Position numbers and translations under genes: made by a program
The notes under the pieces: model-generated
The model's database searches: none
The model's input: the letters and a program-made list of their open reading frames with translations, nothing else
What the model was told of the DNA's origin: nothing
From: Ophioderma brevispina
Taxonomy: Eukaryota > Echinodermata > Ophiuroidea > Amphilepidida > Ophiodermatidae
Assembly (NCBI GenBank): GCA_023653785.1
Contig: JAMKCH010078985.1
Location: 1-64,000 of the forward strand
DNA: 64,000 bases
Reading direction: 5' to 3'
Shown here: positions 4,991 through 63,985 of the stretch, in pieces
Position numbering within the stretch: position 1 is the stretch's first letter
How the letters are laid out: the number at the start of each line of letters is the position of its first letter

Positions 4991-5029
<39 letters not shown>
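4991..5029. repeat. poly-G homopolymer of about 38 bases
   Basis: An uninterrupted guanine run follows CACGC and precedes TGGTCGCACCCC. It could form intermolecular or intramolecular G-quadruplex. Its length makes a base-calling or assembly artefact a real possibility. It sits at the edge of a degenerate repeat (to about 5280) with fragments such as CACCCTGG that also occur near 36.4 kb. Confidence 0.85.
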
Positions 5030-8640: not shown

Positions 8641-11476
8641 AGTTTAAAACCCAAATAAATTTTTGTGCCTGAGAAAAAAGGAGATCAAACATCCTCAACC
8701 CACCATGTTCATACTCATGTACAATACAATGTCCATCTTGACTCTATCATTCCCCCATTCCAATGAATTTATAAAAACGTGGTTCATTTTTTGAAAAAAG
8801 TATTGGGGAATATTAATGTCAAATAACAGACAAAGATAGAGCAGCTGAGGTAACCTCAAGATTAATACCGTGACTTTTCCTCCCCATGATAGACAAATTC
8901 CTGCGTTTCCAACAATTAAGATTCTGCTCATTTGATTCCAGTTTAGGAATAAAATTAAGTTCATAAAGGGGGTTAACATTGAGAGAAAATTAATACCCAT
9001 AGTCTAAAAGTATTTGCACCATCCATTTAAGACTTTAATCCCTGAAAGGGAAGGAAAATTAGACCCCTTTAAAACTACCATGTGAATAGCTTCAACTTAG
9101 AACAAATAATTTTGCAACCCCTAATATGAGTCAAACTTATCAAGAGTAATTGAAAAAAAGCGTGAAAGGATCCTAATCCCCTGTACAAAACATGTGGTAT
9201 CATCAGCCAGTACGGTAATCTTTTTGTTTCTTCCACATCCCCACCCTACACCTTTAATGTCATCATTACAAACTAGGCTTGAAATAGCAAAAATCTCGAT
9301 CGCAAAAAGGAACAAAAAGGGAGAAATAGGGCAGCCTTGAAAAATGGCCCCGAGACATAGCAATAAGTTACTAAGAAAACCATTATTAATAACGTAGCTT
9401 TTCCGACATATAAAAGTCCTATCCACTGAATAAAATTATCTCTCTTCCCTATTTTGCCGCATTGTGTCCCTCCTTCTTAATCTAGAAAGAACCTCAAAAA
9501 AACATGTTCACAAAACTGCAAATGCTTTTTTTCGATATAATAAAAAAAATTGCCCCAGGAAATAATCAGATATCACATACTCAATGAATCAAAATATTAG
9601 AGTCGTCTCAGTCGCCTTTACGGTCACAGCCAAGATTCAGTCCTAGACAGGGCTTGTCCGGATGGGCGCCGACTGCCCTTGTGCGCCTTCCCTTGTCTCC
9701 CTCCTGAGTCTAACGACCTTATGGCGTGGTGATCGTACTTGCCCACCTACTCCATCCCGCTTCCATGACATGTAGATTGTTGTCTAGAGCTGGTTTAAGG
9801 AAGCGACTGGCCATAGTGTTGGCATATAGTTTTAATCCGTAGTCAAATAAGGAATAGGAAGATAATTTTTAACGCAATTAGGATCTCGATCTTTTTTATG
9901 AAGCCAAAGTGATGATCCCATTTCTCCTGGGATGGAGCCAAAACACACCTGTGTCAAGTATAAATTAAGAGAGGCTAAAATAAGTCAGCAATATCTTGAA
10001 AAAATACAATGTAGAATTCAGCTGGTAGGCCATCCAGACCAGCGACTTATTATGCTGCATGGCTTTAATATTTGACAATAGCTCTGCTTTCCTAAATGGG
10101 CCTATTTAAAAGGTGTCCTTTCGAAGTGCTCCGAAAGTTGAGTGATAGTAGAGCTGATCCAAAAGGAGCAAGCGCCCCCTCTGAATCACGCAGTAAAATC
10201 AGAAGAATACTGTTTACCATAAAAAGGCTGCCAGTTCCCTCCCTCAAAATTAAATATCCGGATCATTCTGAAGAGTACCTCAATCCATAACAAGACTACG
10301 AATAATTTTCTTTTCGCAGGACCGCTTTTCTAATTGTCAAAAGTACCAATGGAGCTCTTCTCACCATTGTTCAGCCCATTTAATTCTAATCTTACAAAAC
10401 GAACCACTGTTTCCCTCCTGACTTAAAATATAATTTACTTTATTTTCCAAGAGTGAATTGATCCCAGGTATTCTCAAGATTGGGATTAGAGTCCTATTCC
10501 CATCGATGTCAGAGATGTCTTTCTTCACAACCTTTTTCAGATTTTGACCAACCGATCGATTTAGTCTTAGTCCTTTCCTTTTCTTCCTGCTAGTATATTC
10601 CTATGAAACCAGTAAAAAACATTTCAAACTTAGCCCAAAGAATATTAGGATTGGCAAGGGAATGACTATGTATTGTTTTAAACCGCAAATTTGTGGATTG
10701 GATGAAAATTAATAAATTCAGCATCATGTCTTAAAAATTGCAATTAAGCTTCTAATAGCCTTTACCTCTCCAGGGATATCATTTGAAATTTTTGCAGTGA
10801 CCATAGATTGGTCAGAACTAATACCAGAAATAATATTGGAAGCTTCACATTATTGTACCAATTAAGTGGTGATGCAAAATATAATCAAGTCTAGATAAGG
10901 CAACCGATGTTTTTGAGGTCAGATTTCTCATCTCCAGATATCAACCCGTTGAATTCATCCTAAGTTTCTCAAAAATGTCTCCCTGGAATTATATTGAAAT
11001 GACGTGCGAGAGAACCATTATAGTCTAGAGGGGCCTAAGGCAAAATTGCAATCCCCTGCAACAATCAGCCGAGAGGAATCCATATTATCCAAACTGACAA
11101 AGAGATCAGAAAAAAATCAGGGTTCAATCATTATTTGGTGCTAAACATTAACTAAAATTAAATGGAACACCATTAACTAAAGCATCCACTATAATAATCT
11201 ACCTTCAGGGTCCAAAATAGCTTATTAATAGCAACAACAATGGAGGACTTGATAAGGATCCCAACACCCCCCCGACTGTTAGATGCATAAACTAGAGAGC
11301 CACATATGACCACCCCATTGAGTAGACCACCATTTCTTTCTCATCTGTCAATGAAGAGTGGGTTTCCTGAGAAAATATATATCTTTGCGTTGACTGAGGA
11401 AAGTAATTAAAAATTTTCTTCCTCTTAAATTGTCTTGTAAACCCCTGCCTTGAACGTGGTAAATTTTAAAGCCATA
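8640..11476 (-). pseudogene. decayed L1/Tx1-like non-LTR retrotransposon ORF2 (endonuclease plus reverse transcriptase)
   Basis: Read on the minus strand, motifs of an L1-group ORF2 occur in the right order but in shifting frames. They are an apurinic-endonuclease QETHSS (11353-11370), SRGVGILIK (about 11250-11280), AGDCN in place of the usual GDFN (about 11045), RLDYIL (about 10885) and SDQS in place of SDH (about 10810). Next come reverse transcriptase GLDGLPAEFY (about 10014-10041), KKDRDPNCVKNY (about 9870-9898), QGCPISPFLFLFAIE (about 9300) and LADDTT (about 9200), where most families have YADD. A carboxy-terminal LWGKVTV-like block and DRVKMD to GGLRMFD follow (about 8990-8660). The protein would copy the element's RNA at a nicked chromosomal target. 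At least ten frame breaks or stops make it inactive as read. A GC-richer stretch at 9605-9765 interrupts the reverse transcriptase. No ORF1 protein is recognised upstream. Confidence 0.85.
9605..9765. other. GC-rich insertion within the L1-like reverse transcriptase
   Basis: Between the KNY block and the QGCP block, about 160 bp of clearly higher GC does not translate into reverse transcriptase sequence in any frame. It contains CGACTGAGACGACTC and GGCGCCCATCCGGACAAGCC. It looks like a fragment of another repeat inserted into, or replacing, part of the LINE. No clear target duplication is visible. Confidence 0.45.
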
Positions 11477-17531: not shown

Positions 17532-20100
17532 CCATTTCAATTGGTTTTCACCTCGTTAGGCATAAAGCATTTTGTGCTTATAGGGTCAATTGAGCATGAT
17601 ATTGTTATCACTTATTTCACCCACTTAGAACATTTGAATTGCACTGGTTTTCCTAACCAAACACATAAAAAGTCCAAAAAAAGGTCAGGAATTGGGGAGT
17701 ACAGCAGCCTCTATTTTATGAAATGTAAACCTTGGCTGAAGTATAGAAAAGGGAAAATCCCCTTCTCAGTTTCCCTGCAAATATTTGTGGATTATTTTTT
17801 CACAGCATTGGTGACAAACCAGAATTACTACAGTGAATGACAGCTTTGAACATGAATGTTGAGTCACTAGTCTTTACTACTTATCAATTCTGATTTGTAT
17901 TTATGTTAGAACTTATATCCTATTCGAAAAAATCCAATTATATTAGAATTGGTTAAATTACAATCCTTTTATTTTGAGACATGACCAAGTTATTTGGCTA
18001 GGTCACAAAGTCACTAGAGTGTGTACAAACTACACATTACACAACACTGCCTCCAATTGGTTGTTAATGGTTGTTTGAAGGTCCCGTGTGGCGATTTCAA
18101 CAGGATGATGATACTATGATGTGTGCGTGTGGCATCGGGATACATCGCTTCGTCATTTAAACCTTGTTGCAAAAGTTACAGGCCAGAAGGTGAGCCTTAT
18201 TTTTCAAGGCGGAGCTTGAAAAGCTTAGTCTTTTTGACCAGGGTTTTTAGTAATTTACATATGTATGGTTCAGCTGAATGCTTTATTTCAGTTTCCGTAA
18301 TGTTTGGAATTTAGCTAACAGCTATGTGGTCCGAGTTCTTTTCTGCAGTATATATTTACAACCATGCAAAACAATGAACCTTTTCTCATTCAGGCACTAT
18401 CAGTGATCCTGTGAAAGCTTGGGAAACTCTGACGGATCCTTAAAGGGGGATATGGCCCGATTAATTCCTATCAATTGTTCATCGTGAAGATAGTCTTTGC
18501 CCAAAACCCCATCTATAGGCCTAAGTTTTCGCGCTAATATTTCAATCCGTTTTGAGAAGATCTGGGTCCCTGGGGGCGAGGCAATTAGCGATCGACCATG
18601 GAAAAAAAAACTTTAAAGCGCACTGGCACTTTTTCACAAATATAAATTTCTTCATATTGTTCACAATGCTAAGCTACGGTCCCTAGTCTAGTCCCTAGGC
18701 CATTGGAAGAAACATATAGTTTACACATAAAATAACATTATACCCAAAACAGATAGGGGCATTCATAAGAGGCTAAACACATCTAAATAATTTGTAGGCT
18801 AACCTTATGTTTTTAAAGTTGATAAGTAGTGTTTGCTGATCTGAATTTGTATTTTAGTATTTTTTGTTACTGCATTTTAAGCACTAACATACCTGCAATT
18901 GGTAGGCTTGAAATCCAAGTTTTAAATACAACAGTACTTTTTATATGATTCGGTAATTTTTATATATGACATGGTTTCAATTCGACCTAGGTTTTACTGC
19001 CAAAAGTGTAAAATGTGAAGGTGCTTTAAAGTGAAACAAAACATTTTTTCTAGTTAAAAATTAGGTGTAGAATCAAATCTGAAGTCCAAAATGCAAAATG
19101 TTTGATGCTTTCCGAATATCGCATTTTGGGTATTGCGCATGCCAAGTCCCATATAAACCTAGGTATTTTGCTGGATATTGCACTTGGCTTTTGATAAAAA
19201 AAAAAAAAAAATATTTTGCAGTTGAGCAAAAATTAATTCTATATTCGTGTGGGATATGTCTTTGTCATAATCGCTAACTTTTCAACGATGTCCACCCTTT
19301 CGTTTATTTTTCACGGGTTCTTGAAGTGCCGATTTTTAGGTTAAAATTTGGATCCCCAAATTGATAAAAAAAAAAATTCTCAATTAAGACAAGGTAAAAC
19401 AAAGTTAATAACATAAACTCTGTAGGGACTTGTTGGGCATAATCGATTAAATATTCACGCTAGAGCTCTTATAGTTTCTCGTAGTTCGAATTTTATTGAA
19501 CAACGATATTTTTTTCACGCACTGGAAAAATCAGGCGTAGGGCAAACATGTTGTATTTTGGAATTATTCCTATACTTGAAATGAACCAAGTTAGGTATCA
19601 ATTGAAGCTTATAATTCTGCTAAAATGCAGGTAACCCTCACTGTCGACCCTTCCTTTCCAGAGATGTGATTGGCAAAGCAACATTTTTGTTCGAAGTGCT
19701 AATTTTAATGTCGTTGTCAGGGACATGTCAAATTGAATGGTTCTGTGTGCAAATATTAAAATAATTGTAACAAACAAATATTTGAATCCATAAGTTAGTA
19801 CCTGTAATTATATATGAACACTATAAAGGGTCATATAGATGTATATTGGAGACCTCTGTAAGTATTCAAAGTTGGTAGGTGAAAATTTTTGTCACGCGAA
19901 AGTGCGATTCGGACAAAATGGCCCCAAATCAATATTTTGTAGCAAAATGTGTATGATACAGGGTTTTCATAATCTACGAACAATATTACCCTAGAAAGAA
20001 CATCTTAAAAATTAAACATGGTTATTTTTGCCTCAGATATGAATTTTTTCACACTTTGGCACTAAAACCTAGTTCAATTCTGAAACCATGTTCATATGCG
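17532..20100. other. AT-rich intergenic DNA
   Basis: No exon or RNA gene seen. Near 18442, TTAAAGGGGGATATGG resembles the left end of a TTAA-type MITE without a recognised partner end. Confidence 0.5.
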
Positions 20101-20121
20101 TATCAAAATTCCGATTGTGCA

Positions 20122-20129
20122 TATAAAAG
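20122..20129 (+). promoter_or_regulatory. TATA-like box
   Basis: TATAAAAG lies about 80 bp before an ATG in a good context. If used, transcription would start near 20150. It matches the TATA consensus, but such words are frequent in AT-rich DNA. Confidence 0.3.
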
Positions 20130-20207
20130 CCTTTCCCGTGAATACGTATCGTTACAGCGCCCGGGGCGTGCAGTTTTCAAAAGGGGAGGCGTTGTTACAG
20201 TCAGAAA

Positions 20208-20333
20208 ATGGAAAGCAAGAAACCGCAAAAAATCACCGTACACACGCTTATGTCGCTGATTAACAATAATACAAAAGGGAACAAGCAGGGGGACGCTGTT
20301 TTCGCACTTGCCGAGGTCAAAGTTCCACACTAA
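20208..20333 (+). CDS. small ORF, possible first exon of the adaptor-like gene
   Basis: A 41-codon frame starts at an ATG in a favourable context (GAAAATGG) downstream of the TATA-like box. It is basic at the front (MESKKPQK) and ends AEVKVPH followed by TAA. Composition is protein-like in an otherwise AT-rich region. It matches no family I recognise. It could be a short stand-alone peptide, or the 5' exon of the gene whose Tyr-rich pieces lie at 20350 and 23428; joining them needs a frame change of one base. Chance remains a serious alternative. Confidence 0.25.
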   Translation: MESKKPQKITVHTLMSLINNNTKGNKQGDAVFALAEVKVPH

Positions 20334-20337
20334 TTAA

Positions 20338-20411
20338 ATTATTACAACTGTGCACAACAGCGATTATGATACTGATTACGACAGTCCTGGCCATTAAATC
20401 ATGTGATTTAG
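20338..20411 (+). CDS. possible exon with Tyr/Asp-rich peptide and strong splice donor
   Basis: The frame reads VHNSDYDTDYDSPGH (20350-20394), an acidic tyrosine cluster like those phosphorylated in immune-type adaptor proteins. It is followed by two in-frame stops, then TTTAG|GTAAGC, a near-consensus 5' splice site at 20411/20412. The phase after the donor (two bases) fits the one base before the open frame at 23429, so the exons could be joined in the Tyr-motif frame if the stops come from compensating indels. No family is assigned. Confidence 0.3.
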
Positions 20412-20413
20412 GT

Positions 20414-22450
20414 AAGCTTAACTCGTTTTCTTGAATTGTTTTTATCCAAAAATCGTAGGGGGGGGGGCATTTATTAGAGCAGGGGCGTTTATTAGGAACA
20501 ACATGGTATCCCAGATAATATTGTGCACCATAACCTGTACAGTTTGACCTCAAACACAAACATTATAGATTTTTTTTTCTGTAGTGCTGTAAACCACAAT
20601 CAGTTGTTTAGTGGAGATTTTGAGACATCATCACTGTATGTCTATTTACGGGAGACTGTATGTCTGACAAATTTCTTCCAATACTTCATTTTTGCACTAT
20701 TTGGTGTTTTTGTATATAGAATTGTACATACTTATCTTGGATTTATAAGCTACTTAAATGCATTTTCACATTTTTTAAAATTCTGTAGCATCGTTGCTTA
20801 TCCCTTTAAAGAGACGTGAGGACATTTCTAGAGAGAAGCAGCTGCTCGGGCGGCTAAAGCCGCTCTCGCGGGATAAAAATACACGGATGCATGGATGCAG
20901 AGTTGTTATAGTAGATTCAACCCATCGTGTCACCGGAGGAAAAGTTTTGGACAGCGTCGATTAGTTGGGAGAGGAGGCATAAAAAGAAAATATGTGGCCC
21001 GATTCACCTGTTTCATGAAAGAACTAAGATAATCTGGCCTTTCATGTTTACATATTATCCAAAACACGGGCGCTCAAAGGTCAGTAGCATTCGACTCACT
21101 TGATGTTGCATTGAACATGTTGAATACCACTGAAGCAAATACGATTAGTCAGAATGTTTTCATGTAGCTATAATGCGCTTACGTTGACTTGAATGTTTTT
21201 ATTAAGTATGGAATTGATTTTTCTCAGAATCCTATCGGACTACATGTTCCAATAGATTTAGCTTGGAATTTTAATTTCCACCCAACCTGCAACACATTGG
21301 CTTAGGAGATTTTCAGGATTGGGGGGCCCACCGCGAGGCGCCAAGTGGGGGAGGCTCGTGGCGGCACCAGTAAAGGGGGGGGGCCAATTTTTTCTCCTTT
21401 TGCCCCAATACTATCACTCTACTACCCCCCAGAATTTCATTTTTCCCCAAAAAGAGAAGTCTGGTTCTACCCATCGGGGGAGGGGAAGGCTTTGAATTTG
21501 ATGTTGTGTTAAAAATGATATAATTATTGGGGGGGCTCAAGGGGTATTGAGCCCCTCCACCAAAATTATTGGGGGTTTCCCAGCCCCCCCAAGCCCCCCC
21601 GCTTCCTAAGCTATGGTCCCATGCCCCTCATTCAAAGCCCATACCTTCGGGAAAGTACTCGAGGTGACCGATGTTGATCTACTAGTAATTTGTGATGAAC
21701 CACCTGTAACATGTTTGAATCCCTAAGTGAATAACACTTGCGAGGAGAAATATCCTGATGTTTTTGTGTCACTCTCATTTCTGTTTTCCTGCTTGTTTTG
21801 CCTCTGTGTGGATATTAAAGTTACAAAATTTGTGAAAGTTGTAGTGACATTCAAAAAATTTAAAACCAATAGATCTGACTTGGGTCATGGATGAAATATA
21901 CAAACCTTCATATGTTAAGCGTCACAGGTCACAGTCTTAATTCAAGGTCATCCAGATCAGTGACCTATAATACTATACATAAAAGGCAACATTAGAAATT
22001 TTGGCAGACTCTTGTGAACAAATCAAGTTGAATTGTGTATAAAAATAGGACATTGAATAGTGTTTATTTTGTTGTTGAACTTTGAGTGTGTAATCAACAT
22101 GGTTGCTAATTATACCAGTTTTTTTTTGTTTTGATTAATAAGGTCATGAAAGGTCAAACATTTCAACATGTTGCATACAGCAGAGCAATATATCAAGATT
22201 ATTATTATTATTAGTTACAAATGAGAATGGAGACCCTGAATGAACTTACCATTTGTAAACTTCTGTGAGCTTGAATTTTTTAAAACATACAAAAAGTTTT
22301 TAAAAATACAGGTTTGGGACCTTTTTGGCAGTAATAGAATATTGGATGTGTGCCAATATTGAAAAATGTATGGTAACATCCCCAATGTTGAGTAATTTTA
22401 TGGAGATTGTTGTTTTCTCCCCAAAGGACAAATCTTGATTTCTTAATTTG
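20414..22450. other. putative intron or intergenic DNA with low-complexity G/C runs
   Basis: No exon is recognised. Around 21315-21610 there is a strongly G-skewed then C-skewed stretch (GGGGGGGCTCAAGGGGTATTGAGCCCC hairpin; CAGCCCCCCCAAGCCCCCCC), likely a repeat end. ATT triplets occur near 22200. Confidence 0.4.
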
Positions 22451-22454
22451 GAAG

Positions 22455-23350
22455 GTGACTTGCCATTTGGTCTAATCCCAATTGGTCTAATGGCCATTTT
22501 ATCTAACTCCAATTGGTCTAATACCATTTAGTCTAATAACCATTTAGGCTATTAACCATTTAGTCTAATAGCCGTGTAGTCTAATATTCATCTGGTCTAA
22601 AACTCATGTTGTCTAATATACATATCGTCTATAACCGAATTGGTTTAATGCCAATTGGTCTAATACCCATCTGGTCTAATACTCCATTTGGTTTAATATC
22701 CATCTGGTCTAATATTCATTTGGTCTAATAACCTTTTGGTCTAATATCCATTTGGTCTAACATCCATCCTGGTCCATATCCTTTGTCTAATATCCTTGGT
22801 CTAATATTCATCTAGTCTAATATTCATTTTGGCTAATACCCATTTGGGCTAATGCCCATTTTGGTCTAATATCCATTTGGTCTACGTCCATCGGTCTAAT
22901 ATCCATTTGTCTAATCAATTTATCAATGGTTAGGATCAATTATTTTTGGGTTCACATCCAAATGGAGATTAAGACCAAATGAATTATTATTTAGAACAAT
23001 TGGATATTAGACCTGGTGCCCTTAAACCAAATGGCTATTAGACTCAGTGAATATGAGAACGGATGGCTTATTAGACCATTGGTTATTAACCAATGGATAT
23101 TAGACAAATGGAATTTAGACTAGATAGATATTAGACCAAATGGTGTTTGTTCTATTAGACCAAATGGGCCTTAGACTAGATGGGCATTAGACCAAATGGA
23201 TATTAGACATTCTGGTTGTTAGAAAAATTGGATTTAGACTAAATGGGTTATAACAAATTGGTATTAGGGACTATATGGGTTTAGACAATTGAAGTTAGAC
23301 CCAAATGGCTATTAGACCAAACTGGGAGTAACAAATGGCAATAAACCATT
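22455..23350. repeat. inverted minisatellite: CATTTGGTCTAATATC array and its mirror
   Basis: From about 22455 to 22925 the plus strand repeats a degenerate unit of about 16 bp, (C/T)ATTTGGTCTAATA(T)C, roughly 25 times. From about 22985 to 23350 the array runs as the reverse complement (ATTAGACCAAATGGATATTAGAC). The two arrays face each other across about 60 bp, so the region can fold into one long imperfect hairpin. It ends about 80 bp before the splice acceptor at 23427. Confidence 0.9.
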
Positions 23351-23427
23351 TGGAAAGTCCCATGTTTGATAAATAATTATATTGTGTGATCTCACCTTTA
23401 ATAACGTTATTATGTTTTTAATCTCAG

Positions 23428-23967
23428 GTTTCTCAAAGCAGCAGAATCAGATTCTGACGAAGAGGCCGATGATAATTATGAAATAGTGGAATCCAATGAA
23501 TTATTGAACTGGAGTACACGGCAACCCATGCCACTACCGAATGCTCGCATGATCCTGCCGGGAAAAACCTTCCATTACCCAAGAACAAGAAGAAGAAAGT
23601 TTGCTGCCTCCGGTAGTGCCTGTCAAACCACCACCACCAGAACCCCAGAGAAGTATATGAAGTAATGGACACAGAGATGATGATCAACTAGGGATAGGCC
23701 TCGAATGCCTACTCCGGGAGAAGAAGAACAGGAGGTGTATGAAGCTGTAGACCCTAGTGATCAGTACCAGGAGAGGTGTAAGAAGTTACAGAAGTGGGAA
23801 CGGGTGCGCCCCCTACAACCGGGTTTCCGGTTTGGAGGAAGACGATATCTATCAGAACGCACCTGCTGTTAAACACGGAGTCAATCCGGAAGTATCGCAA
23901 TTTGCCGGCAGATCGTGGACAGCAACCAATTAAGGAGGGTGGGTATGCTAAATGGCAGCTCAAATGA
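23428..23967 (+). CDS. exon(s) of a tyrosine-motif, proline-rich adaptor-like protein (frameshifted)
   Basis: An acceptor (TTTTTAATCTCAG) precedes an acidic, clearly protein-like frame. It begins FLKAAESDSDEEADDNYEIV (Tyr codon at 23477), then NWSTRQPMPLPNARM and LPGK. In shifted frames follow LPLPKNKKKK, LPPVVPVKPPPPEP (about 23604-23645), EVYEVMDTE (23650), MPTPGEEEQEVYEAVDPSD (Tyr 23738), DQYQE (23765), a V-stop-EV copy (23776) and EEDDIYQNAP (Tyr 23850). YxNx is the Grb2 SH2-docking pattern. PxxP stretches are SH3 ligands. The repeated (E/D)xYE(V/I/A) words suggest kinase substrates, as in LAT- or SLP-76/BLNK-type scaffolds. No SH2 domain is seen; a frame ends GGYAKWQLK-stop at 23967. At least four single-base indels are needed, so this is a pseudogene or error-laden sequence. 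The family is inferred only from motif style. Confidence 0.5.
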
Positions 23968-24365
23968 CCTGCATCCTTCAAGAACAATGATTGACTCAAT
24001 CACAAACTGTGAATTGTTTCGATTCATTTTGGTGGATACCTTTGAAACTTTCTGACAGTAAAATGTTAGGTATGGAATTCATTGATGATCATGTTGATGA
24101 AATCAATTACTACAGGTGCAAAGTGAGAACCCGATTTGTAGGAATAAGTCCTAGTGTAGGACAGACATGATAAAAATGTTATTGTTAAATAATTGTTCGT
24201 ACCGTGTGTGGTATTGGTGTGTTTGTGTAATGTTTTGGTGTGTGTGTGTCGCGTTCGTGTTTACCTCCAACCGAGGACACACACCTGACTTTTCACTATC
24301 TAAATGAGGACTTCGTTACAACCGAGGACGGTCCTCGCTTTTTGTAACGATTTAAATAATCTAAA

Positions 24366-24412
24366 TATGCAGTTTATTCCGTAATTTACTTTATAACGGA
24401 ATAACTGCATAT
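24366..24412. repeat. short palindrome
   Basis: ATGCAGTTTATTCCGTAAT pairs with ATAACGGAATAACTGCAT across a few bases of loop. It lies just before the satellite block and may be its border or a small foldback remnant. Confidence 0.7.
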
Positions 24413-24419
24413 AATTGGC

Positions 24420-26600
24420 AGTTTTATTGCAGTGATCTACTTGCCCCCATTGACTTAGGGTTAGGGCGAATGTCGAGTGATCTACTCGCCGCAGTGACTT
24501 AGGGTTAGTGCGCAAGCCGAGTTGATCTACTGCCCCATGACTTAGGGTTGGGTTAATTAGTGTTAGAGTTAGTAACCCTAACCTCTAACAATAACCCTAA
24601 CCCTATCACTGAAGCGAGTAGATAACTGGCTTTCCCCCCGCCCTAACCCTAAGTTCACTGGAGCAAATAGATCACTCGGCTTTCGCCCTAACCCTACGTC
24701 ACTGGTGCTAGTAGATCACTCGACTTTCCCCCGAACCCTAGTCACTGGGGCGAGTGATCACTCGACTTCGCCCTAACCCTAATACGGGGCAAGTAGATCA
24801 CGGGCTTTCGCTCTAACCCTAAGGCCTAAACAGTTAGCTAAGCGACTTTTACAGGCCCGGCGGCGCAACTAGTTTTAACCTTTTACCCCATATTTCCCTC
24901 ATTCTTCAGCCCCTGCCCTCTTTAAGGGGCTATCGGTCGGCGACGCTAAAGGCCAGTTATAATAGATAAATATTAATAGTAAATTGTATAGGCCTGCGGC
25001 GCAATCTAGTTGGCTAAGCGTTCTTTAATCTGCTGTGGCGCATCGAGTTGGCTAGCGATCTTTGGCCTGCGGCGCAATCTATTGGCTAAGCGTCTTTATA
25101 GGACTGCGTCGCAATTTAGTTGGCTAAGCGATCTTGATAGGCCTGCGGCGCAATCTATTTTGGCTAATTACCCTAACTCTAACAATAACCCTAACCCTAA
25201 GTCCACTGAAGCGAGTGATGATTCCTCGGCTTTCGCCCTAACCTACGTCACTGGGGCAAGTAGACCACTCGGCTTTCGCCCGAACCCTAAGTCACAACTG
25301 GGCAAGTGATGATCACTCGCTTTCGCCCTAACCCGAGTCACTGGGGCAGTAAGATCACTCGACTTTCGCCCTAACCTAAGTCACTGGGGCGAGTAGATCA
25401 CTGCTTTCGCCCAACCCTGAAATCACTGGGGGCAAGAGATACTGTGCTTCGCTCTAGCCCTAAGTCCCTAAACAAGTTATGTAAGCGACTTTACAGGCCT
25501 GCGGCGCAAGCTAGTTACCTTTTTAACCCCATAATTTTCCCCATTCTTCAAGCCCTGCCCTCTTTAAGGGGCTATCGTCTGCGACGCTAGCCAGTTATAT
25601 AGATAAATATTAATTAGTAATTTATATGCCTGCGGCGCAACTAGTTGGCTAAGCGTTTTTTATAGGCCTGCGGCGCAATCGATTTGGCTAAGCGATCTTA
25701 TAGGCCTGCGGCGCAATCTAGTTGGCTAAGCGATCTTTATAGGCCCTGCGGGCGCAATCTAGTTGGCTAATTAACCCTACTCTTAACAATAACCACTAAC
25801 CATAAGTCACTGAAGCGAGTAGATCACTCGGCTTTCGCCCTAACCCTAAGTCACTGGGGCAAGTATATCACTCGGCTTTCCGCCCTAACCCTAAGTCACT
25901 GGGGCAAGTAGTCACTCGGCTTCAGCCCTACCTAACCCTAAGTCATTAGGGCGAGTAGATCACTCGACTTTACAGCCCTAACCCTAAGTCACTGGGGCGA
26001 GTAGATCACTCGCTTTTTCGCCCTCACCCTAAATCACTGGGGCAAGTAGATCACGGGGCTTCGTCTAACCCTAATCACTAAAACAGTTAGCTAAGCGTTC
26101 TTTATAGGACTGCCGGCGCAAGCTAGTTAACACTTTTACCCCATAATTTCCCTCATTCTTCAAGCCCTTCCCTCTTTAAGGGGCTATCGGTCTGCGAGCT
26201 AGCGAGTTATATAGATAAAAATATTAGATTCGTACATTTTTATAGGCCTGCGGCGCAATCTAGTTTGGTAGCGTTTCTTTCTAAGGCTGCGGCGCAATCT
26301 AAGTTGGCTAGCTATCTTTTATAGGCCTGCGGAGCATTCTAGTTGGCTAAGCGTTCTTATATAGGCCTGCGGCGCAAGCTAGGTAGCTAATGCGACTTTA
26401 TAGCCTGCGGCGCACCTTTTTAAAACAACTTTATAACCCCAACATATTTCCCCTCCTTCTTTAAGCCCCTTCCCTCTTAAGGGGCTATGGTCTGCGACGC
26501 AACCGGTATATAATATAAAAAAATATTAGATTAGTAAAATATTGATTATAAATTTATTGCCTGCGGCGCTACGAACAGTTTTACTATCAAATAAAAACAA
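24420..26600. repeat. higher-order satellite of telomere-word (44 bp) and GGCCTGCGGCGCAA (39 bp) repeats
   Basis: Two interleaved tandem families. One is about 44 bp: GTCACTGGGGCAAGTAGATC, then ACTCGGCTTTCGCCCTAACCCTAA. It ends in two copies of CCCTAA, complement of the animal telomere TTAGGG. The other is about 39 bp: ATAGGCCTGCGGCGCAATCT, then AGTTGGCTAAGCGATCTTT. A unique segment of about 120 bp with CCCTCTTTAAGGGGCTATCGG occurs near 24885, 25525, 26135 and 26437. The order [segment, 39-bp block, 44-bp block] recurs with a period of about 600-640 bp, the last copy being shortened. The monomers contain small inverted repeats (CGAGTAGATCACTCG). Confidence 0.92.
24440..24600. repeat. head-to-head inversion of the telomere-word array
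   Basis: Up to about 24560 the array reads in the TTAGGG sense (GACTTAGGGTTAGGGCGAA). After GTTAGAGTTAGTAACCCTAACC it reads in the CCCTAA sense for the rest of the block. The junction is palindromic. Confidence 0.85.
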
Positions 26601-59082: not shown

Positions 59083-59990
59083 TCACAAATCAGTCAGTTT
59101 TACAAGATAACCCTTTTTGGAAATTTCATCGAAATGTTCAATAGATGTTTTAAAGTCAATCAGTCCACTAATACGGACGTACGGCCACCCCTGGCATGAA
59201 GCAGTTGCGGTCCAGAGGGCCGTCGCGGCATACTGTCCACAAGGTTGTTTAGGGGTCAATGGGCATGCAGAGAGTCCCACTCACGGTCAGAGGCTGAGCT
59301 AGCTCCTGTATAGAGTTTGATGAATGAAGATTTTCCCTGTAATTGATGGTCGGCCTAGATCCAGGCATGCTCGATAGGGTTCATATCAGGATTGCAGGCA
59401 GGCCAATGTATTATGCTACCCTCTGACCTCAAACAACTGTCGCCTATCGACAGCGGCCCTGTGCGGCGTGGCGGTGTGGTCTTGCAGCCGAAAATTGTTT
59501 TGCATAAAACCTTCTGATGTGGCAGGCAGTGAGTGGTTTTCCAGAATGTACAGGTACACGACGGCGCTGGCGTTCATGTTTCATTCTGGCACCCACCAGT
59601 GCACCGTTTTTCCTCCATAATGAATATCGGCGCATACCATTACTGAGCCGCCACCACCTTGAGTCGATTCCTGAATACACTACCACGTAATCGACGAACC
59701 CTTTGTCTTCCATCTTGACGGTCAAGGATGTAGCGGATCTCGTCCATAAAGACAACATTTCGCCAGTGTCCGAGCTGTAATCTTCGGTGCTCCTTAGCCC
59801 AGCGAAGTCGAGCAACTGTGATGGTGAACGCTTAGGGGTGGACATTTTGGTTATTCGTCTTGCTCGGTAACCATGTTGAAGCAATTTCCGATTTACAGTT
59901 TCGCGGGAAACGTTGATCAAATTGTTGTCTTCTCCACAAACGAATAAGACGGCTTGTTGGAATCCCATCTGAAACCTATGTGTCATGCAG
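59083..59990 (-). pseudogene. Tc1-type transposase relic
   Basis: The minus strand reads VSRETVNRKLLQHGYRAR and KMSTPKR (about 59915-59825; helix-turn-helix and GRPR-like linker region), then LDFAGLRST-like (about 59800), GMRRYSLWRKNGALV (about 59630-59590), FRLQDHTATPHRAA (about 59490-59450, corresponding to the usual LQHDNARPH with the second catalytic Asp) and a shifted copy of the WPAxSPDLNPIEHxW block (LACLQS-YEPYRACLD, about 59400-59350). It would cut and paste the element at TA sites. The first catalytic Asp region is disrupted, and several frameshifts and a stop make it inactive. Confidence 0.85.
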
Positions 59991-60080
59991 TTTTTGTTGT
60001 GAAGGTAACAACCAACAACAACAACAAAAATGGGCTACCTGCACTTGGAGCAGGGAAAAGGGACAAACAACAGACGTCTA

Positions 60081-63107: not shown

Positions 63108-63985
63108 TTGATGTCCTCACAGCGAAGACCCAAAATGACAGCGCATAAGTTCATATCACTATATATATAAGTTATATATATATCTTATATAGATATATAT
63201 ATATATATATATATATCTATATATATATATATTGTTGAATATTATACGCCTGGCACAAAAAGTATCTTCGGCAGGTGTTTTGATCAAGTACTGTGCAAAG
63301 TCAGACCATTTTGAACGTTTTTGAAATCTACATTTTGTTGCTAGGTCTTCTTTTTCATTTAATACCTGGCTTGTAAAAAAACGTGCAGAAATGGCTGCGA
63401 TAGAACGCCCTGAAAGCCGCAAACTCCCAAAACCAAAAGTTGCAGTGTGGGAGTTTTCAATGGGCATTCCAACGTAGTACAGGGACGACGAACACGCGGA
63501 CCACACTCAATATGGCAAGTATAGGCTTTCTCGCTCGTTCAGTAGGAAAACCTCTTTGTGTAACAATCAATACACAGTCTTATTGCGTTGTAGTGGTGTA
63601 CACACAGTGACCATTGAAATTATCCAAAACACGCAAACCTTTTGGTTTGGGGGGTTTGCGTACTTTTCGGACACTCCATCGCAGCCATTTTTGCACCGCT
63701 CTTTTTTACAGGGAGAGGTGTAATAGGAAAGAGCAAGACCTAGGCAACAAAAGGTTATATTCGAAAAATTTTTAAAATGGTCCGACTTTGACAGCGTACT
63801 GATAGAAAAACATGCCGAGATACTTTTTGTGTCCAGGTGTTATATATATAACTTTATATATATCTATATCTCGACTATATCTATCTAGTATATAATATAT
63901 ATTATATAATCTATATAATATATAGATATATACTATATTAACTTATGCGCTGTCATTTTGGAGCTTCGCTGTGAGGACATATCGG
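63108..63985. repeat. large palindrome (foldback) with arms of about 370 bp
   Basis: GATGTCCTCACAGCGAAG and CCAAAATGACAGCGCATAAG at 63110-63150 reappear inverted at 63940-63985. The pairing continues through a (TA)n tract in each arm (63165-63235 and 63840-63935), CACAAAAAGTATCTTCGGCA, AAAGTCAGACCATTTTGAAC, TTTTGTTGCTAGGTCTT and GTGCAGAAATGGCTGCGAT, to about 63475/63590. The loop is about 110 bp. Both arms encode similar peptides when read outward (KWSDFAQYLI in one, KWSDFDSVLI in the other), so the source may have been coding. The right end may run past the window. Confidence 0.88.

What the first reader, a model, noticed from the sequence alone, without database searches (positions are those of the whole stretch)
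20122..23967. Candidate undescribed tyrosine-phosphorylation adaptor gene split across 3.8 kb
Seen: an acceptor followed by an acidic frame with DNYEIV, then EVYEVMD, EVYEAVD, DQYQE, a V-stop-EV copy and DIYQNAP, plus a Pro-rich VPVKPPPPEP stretch, all within about 430 bp on one strand. Upstream, SDYDTDYDSPGH ends at a strong GTAAGC donor in compatible phase, and a TATA-ATG unit precedes that. Known: YxNx binds Grb2-type SH2 domains, PxxP binds SH3, and repeated acidic Tyr motifs occur in LAT and SLP-76/BLNK scaffolds. Inferred: a docking protein for an invertebrate immune-type tyrosine kinase pathway, apparently without an SH2 domain.
Basis: partly seen in the sequence, partly recalled or inferred. 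Interest (0 to 1): 0.75.

Follow-up and report, generated by a model that had tools for sequence, protein, structure and literature searches.

The report
Orphan tyrosine-motif exon beside a repeat
A short piece of an animal genome probably encodes part of a signalling scaffold protein, but the supposed first half of the gene is only a common repeat, so this is one unassigned exon rather than a new two-part immune gene.

Summary
The finding joins two unrelated things. The upstream half (window 20157-20430, with the TATA box, ATG, SDYDTDYDSPGH and GTAAGC) is a high-copy interspersed repeat: 2907 first-look candidates, of which 40 were scored and all 40 match (one is the window itself, 39 are 87-90% identical). 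In six fetched copies the peptide recurs, unchanged in 4 and with one change in 2, each time followed by the same stop. Two in-frame stops separate it from the donor, so the 20411/23428 splice has no support. The downstream block (23428-23967) is different: single copy in a 2.51-Gb assembly and strongly coding-like (codon score 24.5 against at most 12.2 in 40 random 64-kb sequences). It is split over three frames by about five shifts. All quoted motifs are there: YEVM, YQNA, two YE[IA]V and a proline run. I found no homologue, no SH2 or hSH3 on its 157-kb contig, and no similarity to SLP-76 above shuffled sequence. A likely SLP-76/BLNK-type gene of this animal lies on two other, overlapping contigs. 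Best reading: one real exon of a fast-evolving docking-type protein, its frame broken mostly by assembly indels. A decaying pseudogene remains possible.

The parts
   Evidence: 2907 first-look candidates, 40 scored and all 40 match (1 is the window itself; 39 others at 87-90%); in 6 of 6 fetched copies the peptide (4 unchanged, 2 with one change) is followed by the same stop
20356..20397 (+). NSDYDTDYDSPGH followed by in-frame TAA (20395-20397); a further in-frame TGA precedes the donor-like GTAAGC at 20412
   Evidence: 11123 first-look candidates, 40 scored, 50 matches; apart from the window itself, the matches of 260 bp or more are 78-95% identical
22463..23340 (.). 16-bp minisatellite, first half in one orientation and second half in the other, just upstream of the block (end approximate)
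   Evidence: a second such array at contig 90572-91431
23428..23967 (+). single-copy coding-like block (probable exon) with tyrosine and proline motifs, read in three frames with about five shifts, ending at a stop (23965-23967)
23429..23570 (+). frame f2 piece: FLKAAESDSDEEADDNYEIVESNELLNW...NARMILPG (all piece boundaries approximate)
   Evidence: at low shift penalty the codon path reads about 23502-23561 in f1 instead
23571..23645 (+). frame f3 piece: ITQEQEEESLLPPVVPVKPPPPEP (K..P..P run, SH3-ligand-like)
23646..23688 (+). frame f1 piece: REVYEVMDTEMM (YEVM = YxxM)
23690..23830 (+). frame f2 piece: RDRPRMPTPGEEEQEVYEAVDPSDQYQERCKKLQKWERV...
23831..23905 (+). frame f3 piece: EEDDIYQNAPAVKHGVNPEVSQF (YQNA = YxNx)
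23906..23967 (+). frame f1 piece: ADRGQQPIKEGGYAKWQLK then stop; a weak donor-like AGG|GTGGGT lies at 23939

Best explanation
Window 23428-23967 is a genuine single-copy coding exon (internal or last) of an animal protein with a disordered, acidic, tyrosine- and proline-rich stretch. It most likely works as a docking segment: tyrosine kinases phosphorylate the acidic Tyr sites, which then bind SH2 proteins (YQNA for Grb2-type, YEVM for PI3K p85-type, YE[IA]V for Src/PLCgamma-type SH2 domains; these assignments are recalled rules), while the K-P-P-P-P-E-P run binds an SH3 domain. The broken frame is mostly an assembly artefact (local indel errors). The block is not shown to be SLP-76/BLNK; a likely gene of that type lies elsewhere in this genome. 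Shown: motifs, frames, single copy, coding-like composition, repeat nature of the upstream half. Inferred: exon status, docking function, cause of the frame breaks.
For: Frameshift-tolerant codon score 24.5 (30.8 with a lower shift penalty) against at most 12.2 in 40 random 64-kb sequences; 6 of 1150 other 543-bp blocks of the contig score as high or higher, all windows over three low-complexity places. GC 0.483 against a contig 95th percentile of 0.46. Good acceptor before it. Single copy in DNA and protein searches of the assembly. 5 of 6 Tyr in a hand-made read-through have an acidic residue at -2; 32 of 20,000 composition shuffles reach that (post hoc). Assembly-error reading: the window copy of the nearby repeat carries an indel-heavy private branch (about 8 gaps to 14 substitutions in 274 bp, against a mean of 0.8 to 5.4 on the branches of 6 other copies; P about 0.002; post hoc).
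Against: No homologue at E up to 10 in two searches of 5.8 billion proteins, a database that does hold animal proteins. No Pfam or PDB match. About five frame breaks in 540 bp (3 to 6 in the codon paths), against 1 in about 1260 coding bp, counted by eye, of the SLP-76/BLNK-type exons in the same assembly, which would fit a pseudogene. The motif cluster alone is reached in 16 of 100 random windows. No canonical polyA signal in the 2 kb after the stop and only a weak donor. The second repeat, compared with two copies, gave no clear indel excess.
Confidence: 0.5

Rival explanations
1. The block is a decaying pseudogene exon: once a docking-type exon, now disabled by real frameshifts.
For: About five shifts in 540 bp, more than in other genes of the assembly (1 in about 1260 bp of the SLP-76/BLNK-type exons; none in a 640-aa HSP70 frame or a 491-aa SH2 frame that looks SOCS-like by eye; these two were picked because they are open). 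Broken HSP70 loci exist in this genome (6 of 7 examined), with substitutions that look neutral.
Against: The five-shift read-through used has no in-frame stop over 177 codons (it was chosen by hand to avoid stops); codon usage and 5 of 6 acidic Tyr sites look intact. The neighbouring repeat copy has an indel-heavy branch typical of consensus error.
Confidence: 0.27
2. The block is the acidic-tyrosine exon of this animal's SLP-76/BLNK-type gene, and contig C61170 is wrongly joined just downstream of it.
For: The genome has a likely SLP-76/BLNK-type gene whose 5' part was not found on its contigs. The block's make-up resembles the middle of SLP-76/BLNK, and satellite arrays begin about 460 bp downstream, a plausible place for a misjoin.
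Against: That gene's proline-rich and SH2 exons lie on overlapping contigs C65055 and C53223; in the parts compared, these share only repeat-like matches with C61170 and none to the block. C61170 continues 133 kb past the block with no convincing SH2. No similarity to 120 LCP2 proteins above shuffles.
Confidence: 0.1
3. The block is the cytoplasmic tail of an unrecognised membrane receptor rather than a soluble adaptor.
For: Tyr/Pro motifs of this kind also occur in receptor tails (recalled), and no globular domain was found in the block.
Against: No upstream exon with a transmembrane segment was identified; this was not searched for.
Confidence: 0.1
4. The two-exon docking gene exactly as the first reader proposed (20411 spliced to 23428).
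For: The arithmetic phases of the two sites fit (2+1 bases) and the sites look like splice sites.
Against: The first 'exon' is a high-copy repeat; the stop after the SDYDTDYDSPGH peptide recurs in 6 of 6 fetched copies; two in-frame stops precede the donor.
Confidence: 0.01

Closest known systems
SLP-76 (LCP2) / BLNK adaptor family
   Same: acidic Tyr motifs and a proline-rich SH3-ligand-like run in a disordered stretch
   Different: no SH2 detected on the 157-kb contig, no sequence similarity above shuffles; a likely member in this genome lies on C65055/C53223
ADAP/FYB1 (SLP-76-associated scaffold)
   Same: EVY..VD-type repeats followed by a charged KK/E stretch (recalled comparison)
   Different: no convincing hSH3 domain on the contig
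LAT and other Tyr-rich docking proteins without SH2
   Same: several Tyr sites, one of YxN type, no SH2 found
   Different: no transmembrane exon identified; not tested

Membership tests
SLP-76/BLNK | C-terminal SH2 domain in the same gene | tested here: not met
   none of 29 SH2 places of the genome is on C61170.: frameshift-tolerant scan of all 157,326 bp, both strands; best score 38.5, 40 kb from the block; the maximum of 24 random 64-kb controls is 36.8, so on 157 kb this is not outstanding. Positive control: 20 of 20 fetched SH2 loci score 48.7-88.7. Scans with single SLP-76 or BLNK profiles gave flat lists up to 64, with no random control; the C53223 gene scores 105 and 93 with them. Short exons with several indels could be missed.
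SLP-76/BLNK | N-terminal SAM domain upstream | tested here: inconclusive
   no outstanding SAM hit upstream on the + strand; only 23.4 kb of upstream contig is available and no random control was run for SAM
SLP-76/BLNK | acidic Tyr motifs and proline-rich SH3 ligands | tested here: met
SLP-76/BLNK | sequence similarity to known members | tested here: not met
   best of 120 LCP2 proteins scores 0.4 bits; 8 of 20 shuffled queries reach 0.4 or more. The 120 are the best listed of 553; the named ones are mammals, birds and reptiles
ADAP/FYB1 | hSH3 domain | tested here: not met
   full profile best 46.0, in the E/K-rich stretch at 155.9 kb, against 38.5-45.0 in 6 random controls; core profile best 38.0 against 36.0-39.0
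LAT-type transmembrane adaptors | N-terminal transmembrane helix | not tested
   no upstream exon could be assigned
tyrosine-phosphorylated docking proteins (what it works like) | phosphorylation of the Tyr sites and SH2 binding | not testable with these tools
   needs protein and kinase assays

The most novel reading that the evidence does not exclude
An expressed tyrosine docking protein without SH2, specific to one animal lineage and distinct from that animal's SLP-76/BLNK, with PI3K-type, Grb2-type and Src-type sites on one exon.
Probability: 0.25. Interest if true: 0.45.

Novelty: new member of a known kind. Interest (0 to 1): 0.2.

Why it matters
If the block is expressed, it is an unassigned signalling scaffold in an animal that also seems to keep a SLP-76/BLNK-type gene, so one could ask how scaffolds were added to tyrosine-kinase pathways outside vertebrate lymphocytes. 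As it stands it mainly shows that a plausible two-exon model can arise from a common repeat next to a single error-ridden exon.

Tried and rejected
SH2 continuing after the block: the end of the block (SW..NQLRR..) and LGMEFIDDHVDEINYY (about 24070-24110) look SH2-like by eye. The profile scan of 23301-24700 scored only 24.0 there, below the random 64-kb maxima of 27.2-36.8. Rejected.

SH2-like hit at 63514-63651 (38.5): it lies in what looks by eye like an inverted-repeat element (not tested), and the score is at the edge of the random controls. Rejected.

ADAP/FYB1 relation: no convincing hSH3 domain. Rejected.

Block spliced directly to the small proline-rich exon of C53223 (phases fit in one reading): dropped after the overlapping contig C65055 showed a 720-bp proline-rich exon preceding it.

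HSP70 as a test of assembly error: 8 of the 64 matches were aligned; L033 (divergent type) and L047 (short piece) were dropped and L032 (intact) added. 6 of those 7 loci have 12-39 shifts, but pairwise codon differences among five of them (L034, L035, L036, L045, L046) are nonsynonymous-rich (2.3-4.1 to 1), as in pseudogenes, so the test is ambiguous. RPB2-type matches: 8 of 12 without a stop, 3 with one, one (C4333) with ten; one apparent frame break at C46398, read from the coordinates.

Taxonomy of the animal: not determined; a COX1 search did not complete.

Full report
What is in the sequence. The window is bases 1-64000 of a 157,326-bp contig (C61170) in an unnamed 2.51-Gb assembly of 65,844 contigs. 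It starts after a good acceptor and has only a weak donor at 23939. The codon paths need 3 to 6 shifts, depending on the penalty; my own reading has five.

Is the block more than chance? The motif cluster alone is weak evidence: 4 acidic-Tyr hits in 540 bp (one of them in a frame I do not use), and 16 of 100 random 64-kb sequences hold a cluster as large; against the block's own composition the count is rare (P 0.001, 2000 resamples). Coding-like composition is strong evidence. With codon usage trained on 1755 codons from this genome's own SH2 and HSP70 loci, the block scores 24.5 or 30.8 (two shift penalties), against at most 12.2 in 40 random 64-kb sequences. Of 1150 other blocks of the contig (both strands), 6 score as high or higher, all windows over three low-complexity places. 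The block is unique in the genome by DNA and by protein search (the best other protein match has E 1.08).

The upstream half is a repeat. A search of the assembly with 20100-20430 gave 2907 first-look candidates; 40 were scored and all 40 match, one being the window itself and 39 at 87-90% identity, most from about 20157 to 20430. In six fetched copies the SDYDTDYDSPGH peptide with the same following stop is read without change in 4 (L065, L066, L067, L070) and with one residue changed in 2 (L068, L069). In the window two in-frame stops separate the peptide from the GTAAGC donor, and the ATG frame is a different frame that stops at 20331-20333. A second repeat fills 20907-21292. The 20411/23428 splice therefore has no support.

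What the block is not shown to be. Pfam and PDB searches gave nothing. Two searches of 5.8 billion proteins gave no match at E up to 10 (308 and 411 candidates), although that database holds many animal SLP-76 proteins. Only relatives sharing exact 5-residue words can be found that way, so this does not exclude distant homologues. None of 29 SH2 places in the genome is on this contig. A frameshift-tolerant scan of the whole contig found no convincing SH2 (random controls; 20 of 20 true SH2 loci score 48.7-88.7) and no convincing hSH3. A comparison with 120 LCP2 sequences was no better than with shuffled queries.

A likely SLP-76/BLNK-type gene lies elsewhere. A search with the SLP-76 SH2 found C53223:2920-3051 (E 0.78). 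That contig holds a proline-rich exon of about 200 bp (AKPIPQPELP...), the SH2 start (NELEGYPWYQGSLKRDKAFAAVKENGQ), middle (DGAFLVRNSEKGGEDAPYSLTLWYNNKV..., with one frame break; Pfam SH2, E 5e-6) and end (AHDSASQMIQYYQQEPVILAKDEGKVILKIAVPIY, stop). The joined SH2 is 35% identical to pangolin LCP2 over 91 residues with one gap. In the PDB it matches PLCgamma1 slightly better (E 1.6e-14) than BLNK (2.2e-13), but BLNK over residues 2-101 of 113. No SAM exon was found. The assignment to this family is therefore likely, not proven. Contig C65055 overlaps C53223 by 770 identical bases and adds a clean 720-bp proline-rich exon upstream. The block was found on neither contig. In print, a sea star (Patiria miniata) has a BLNK-like protein with SAM and SH2 (PMC11593052, passages seen). 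Other literature searches: (listings) and passages of PMC6562523.

Assembly error or pseudogene? For error: the window copy of the repeat has a private branch with about 8 gaps to 14 substitutions in 274 bp. The six other copies average 0.8 to 5.4, so the excess of gaps has P about 0.002 (one repeat copy, post hoc). A second repeat, compared with two copies, shows no clear excess. For a pseudogene: other genes of the assembly are cleaner, with one break in about 1260 bp of the SLP-76/BLNK-type exons (counted by eye) and 8 of 12 RPB2-type matches without a stop. HSP70 loci are ambiguous. I lean to assembly error, about 2 to 1.

Likely mechanism (inferred). The acidic stretch with YEIV, YEVM, YEAV, YQER and YQNA and a K-P-P-P-P-E-P run reads like a docking segment: phosphotyrosines recruit SH2 proteins and the proline run an SH3 protein. 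The motif rules are recalled, not tested. Nothing here ties the block to immunity, and its gene, start and end are unknown.

Noticed in passing
L062-L064 (C53223) and L071-L072 (C65055), minus strand: A likely SLP-76/BLNK-type gene: proline-rich exons of 720 bp and about 200 bp, then an SH2 in three exons, over two contigs that overlap by 770 identical bases.
   Followed up: partly
20157-20430 (copies L065-L070): High-copy interspersed repeat (2907 first-look candidates) of unknown type with a TATA-like start; the six fetched copies differ from each other by 8-15 substitutions and 0-3 gaps.
   Followed up: partly
22463 to about 23340, and contig 90572-91431: 16-bp minisatellite that flips orientation midway; a second array lies about 67 kb away on the same contig.
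   Followed up: no
24431-26414: Alternating satellite arrays of about 44 bp and about 38 bp units just downstream of the block.
   Followed up: no
L034-L037, L045, L046: HSP70 loci with 12-39 frameshifts each beside one intact 640-aa frame (L032): pseudogenes or poor consensus.
   Followed up: partly
9124-9435 (-), 59447-60034 (-): Fragments with sub-threshold matches to reverse transcriptase and to a Tc3-type transposase.
   Followed up: no
4992-5029: A run of 38 G, possibly an assembly artefact.
   Followed up: no
G000:C20659:9587-11128: An intronless 1226-aa RNA polymerase beta-type frame, perhaps a bacterial contaminant contig.
   Followed up: no
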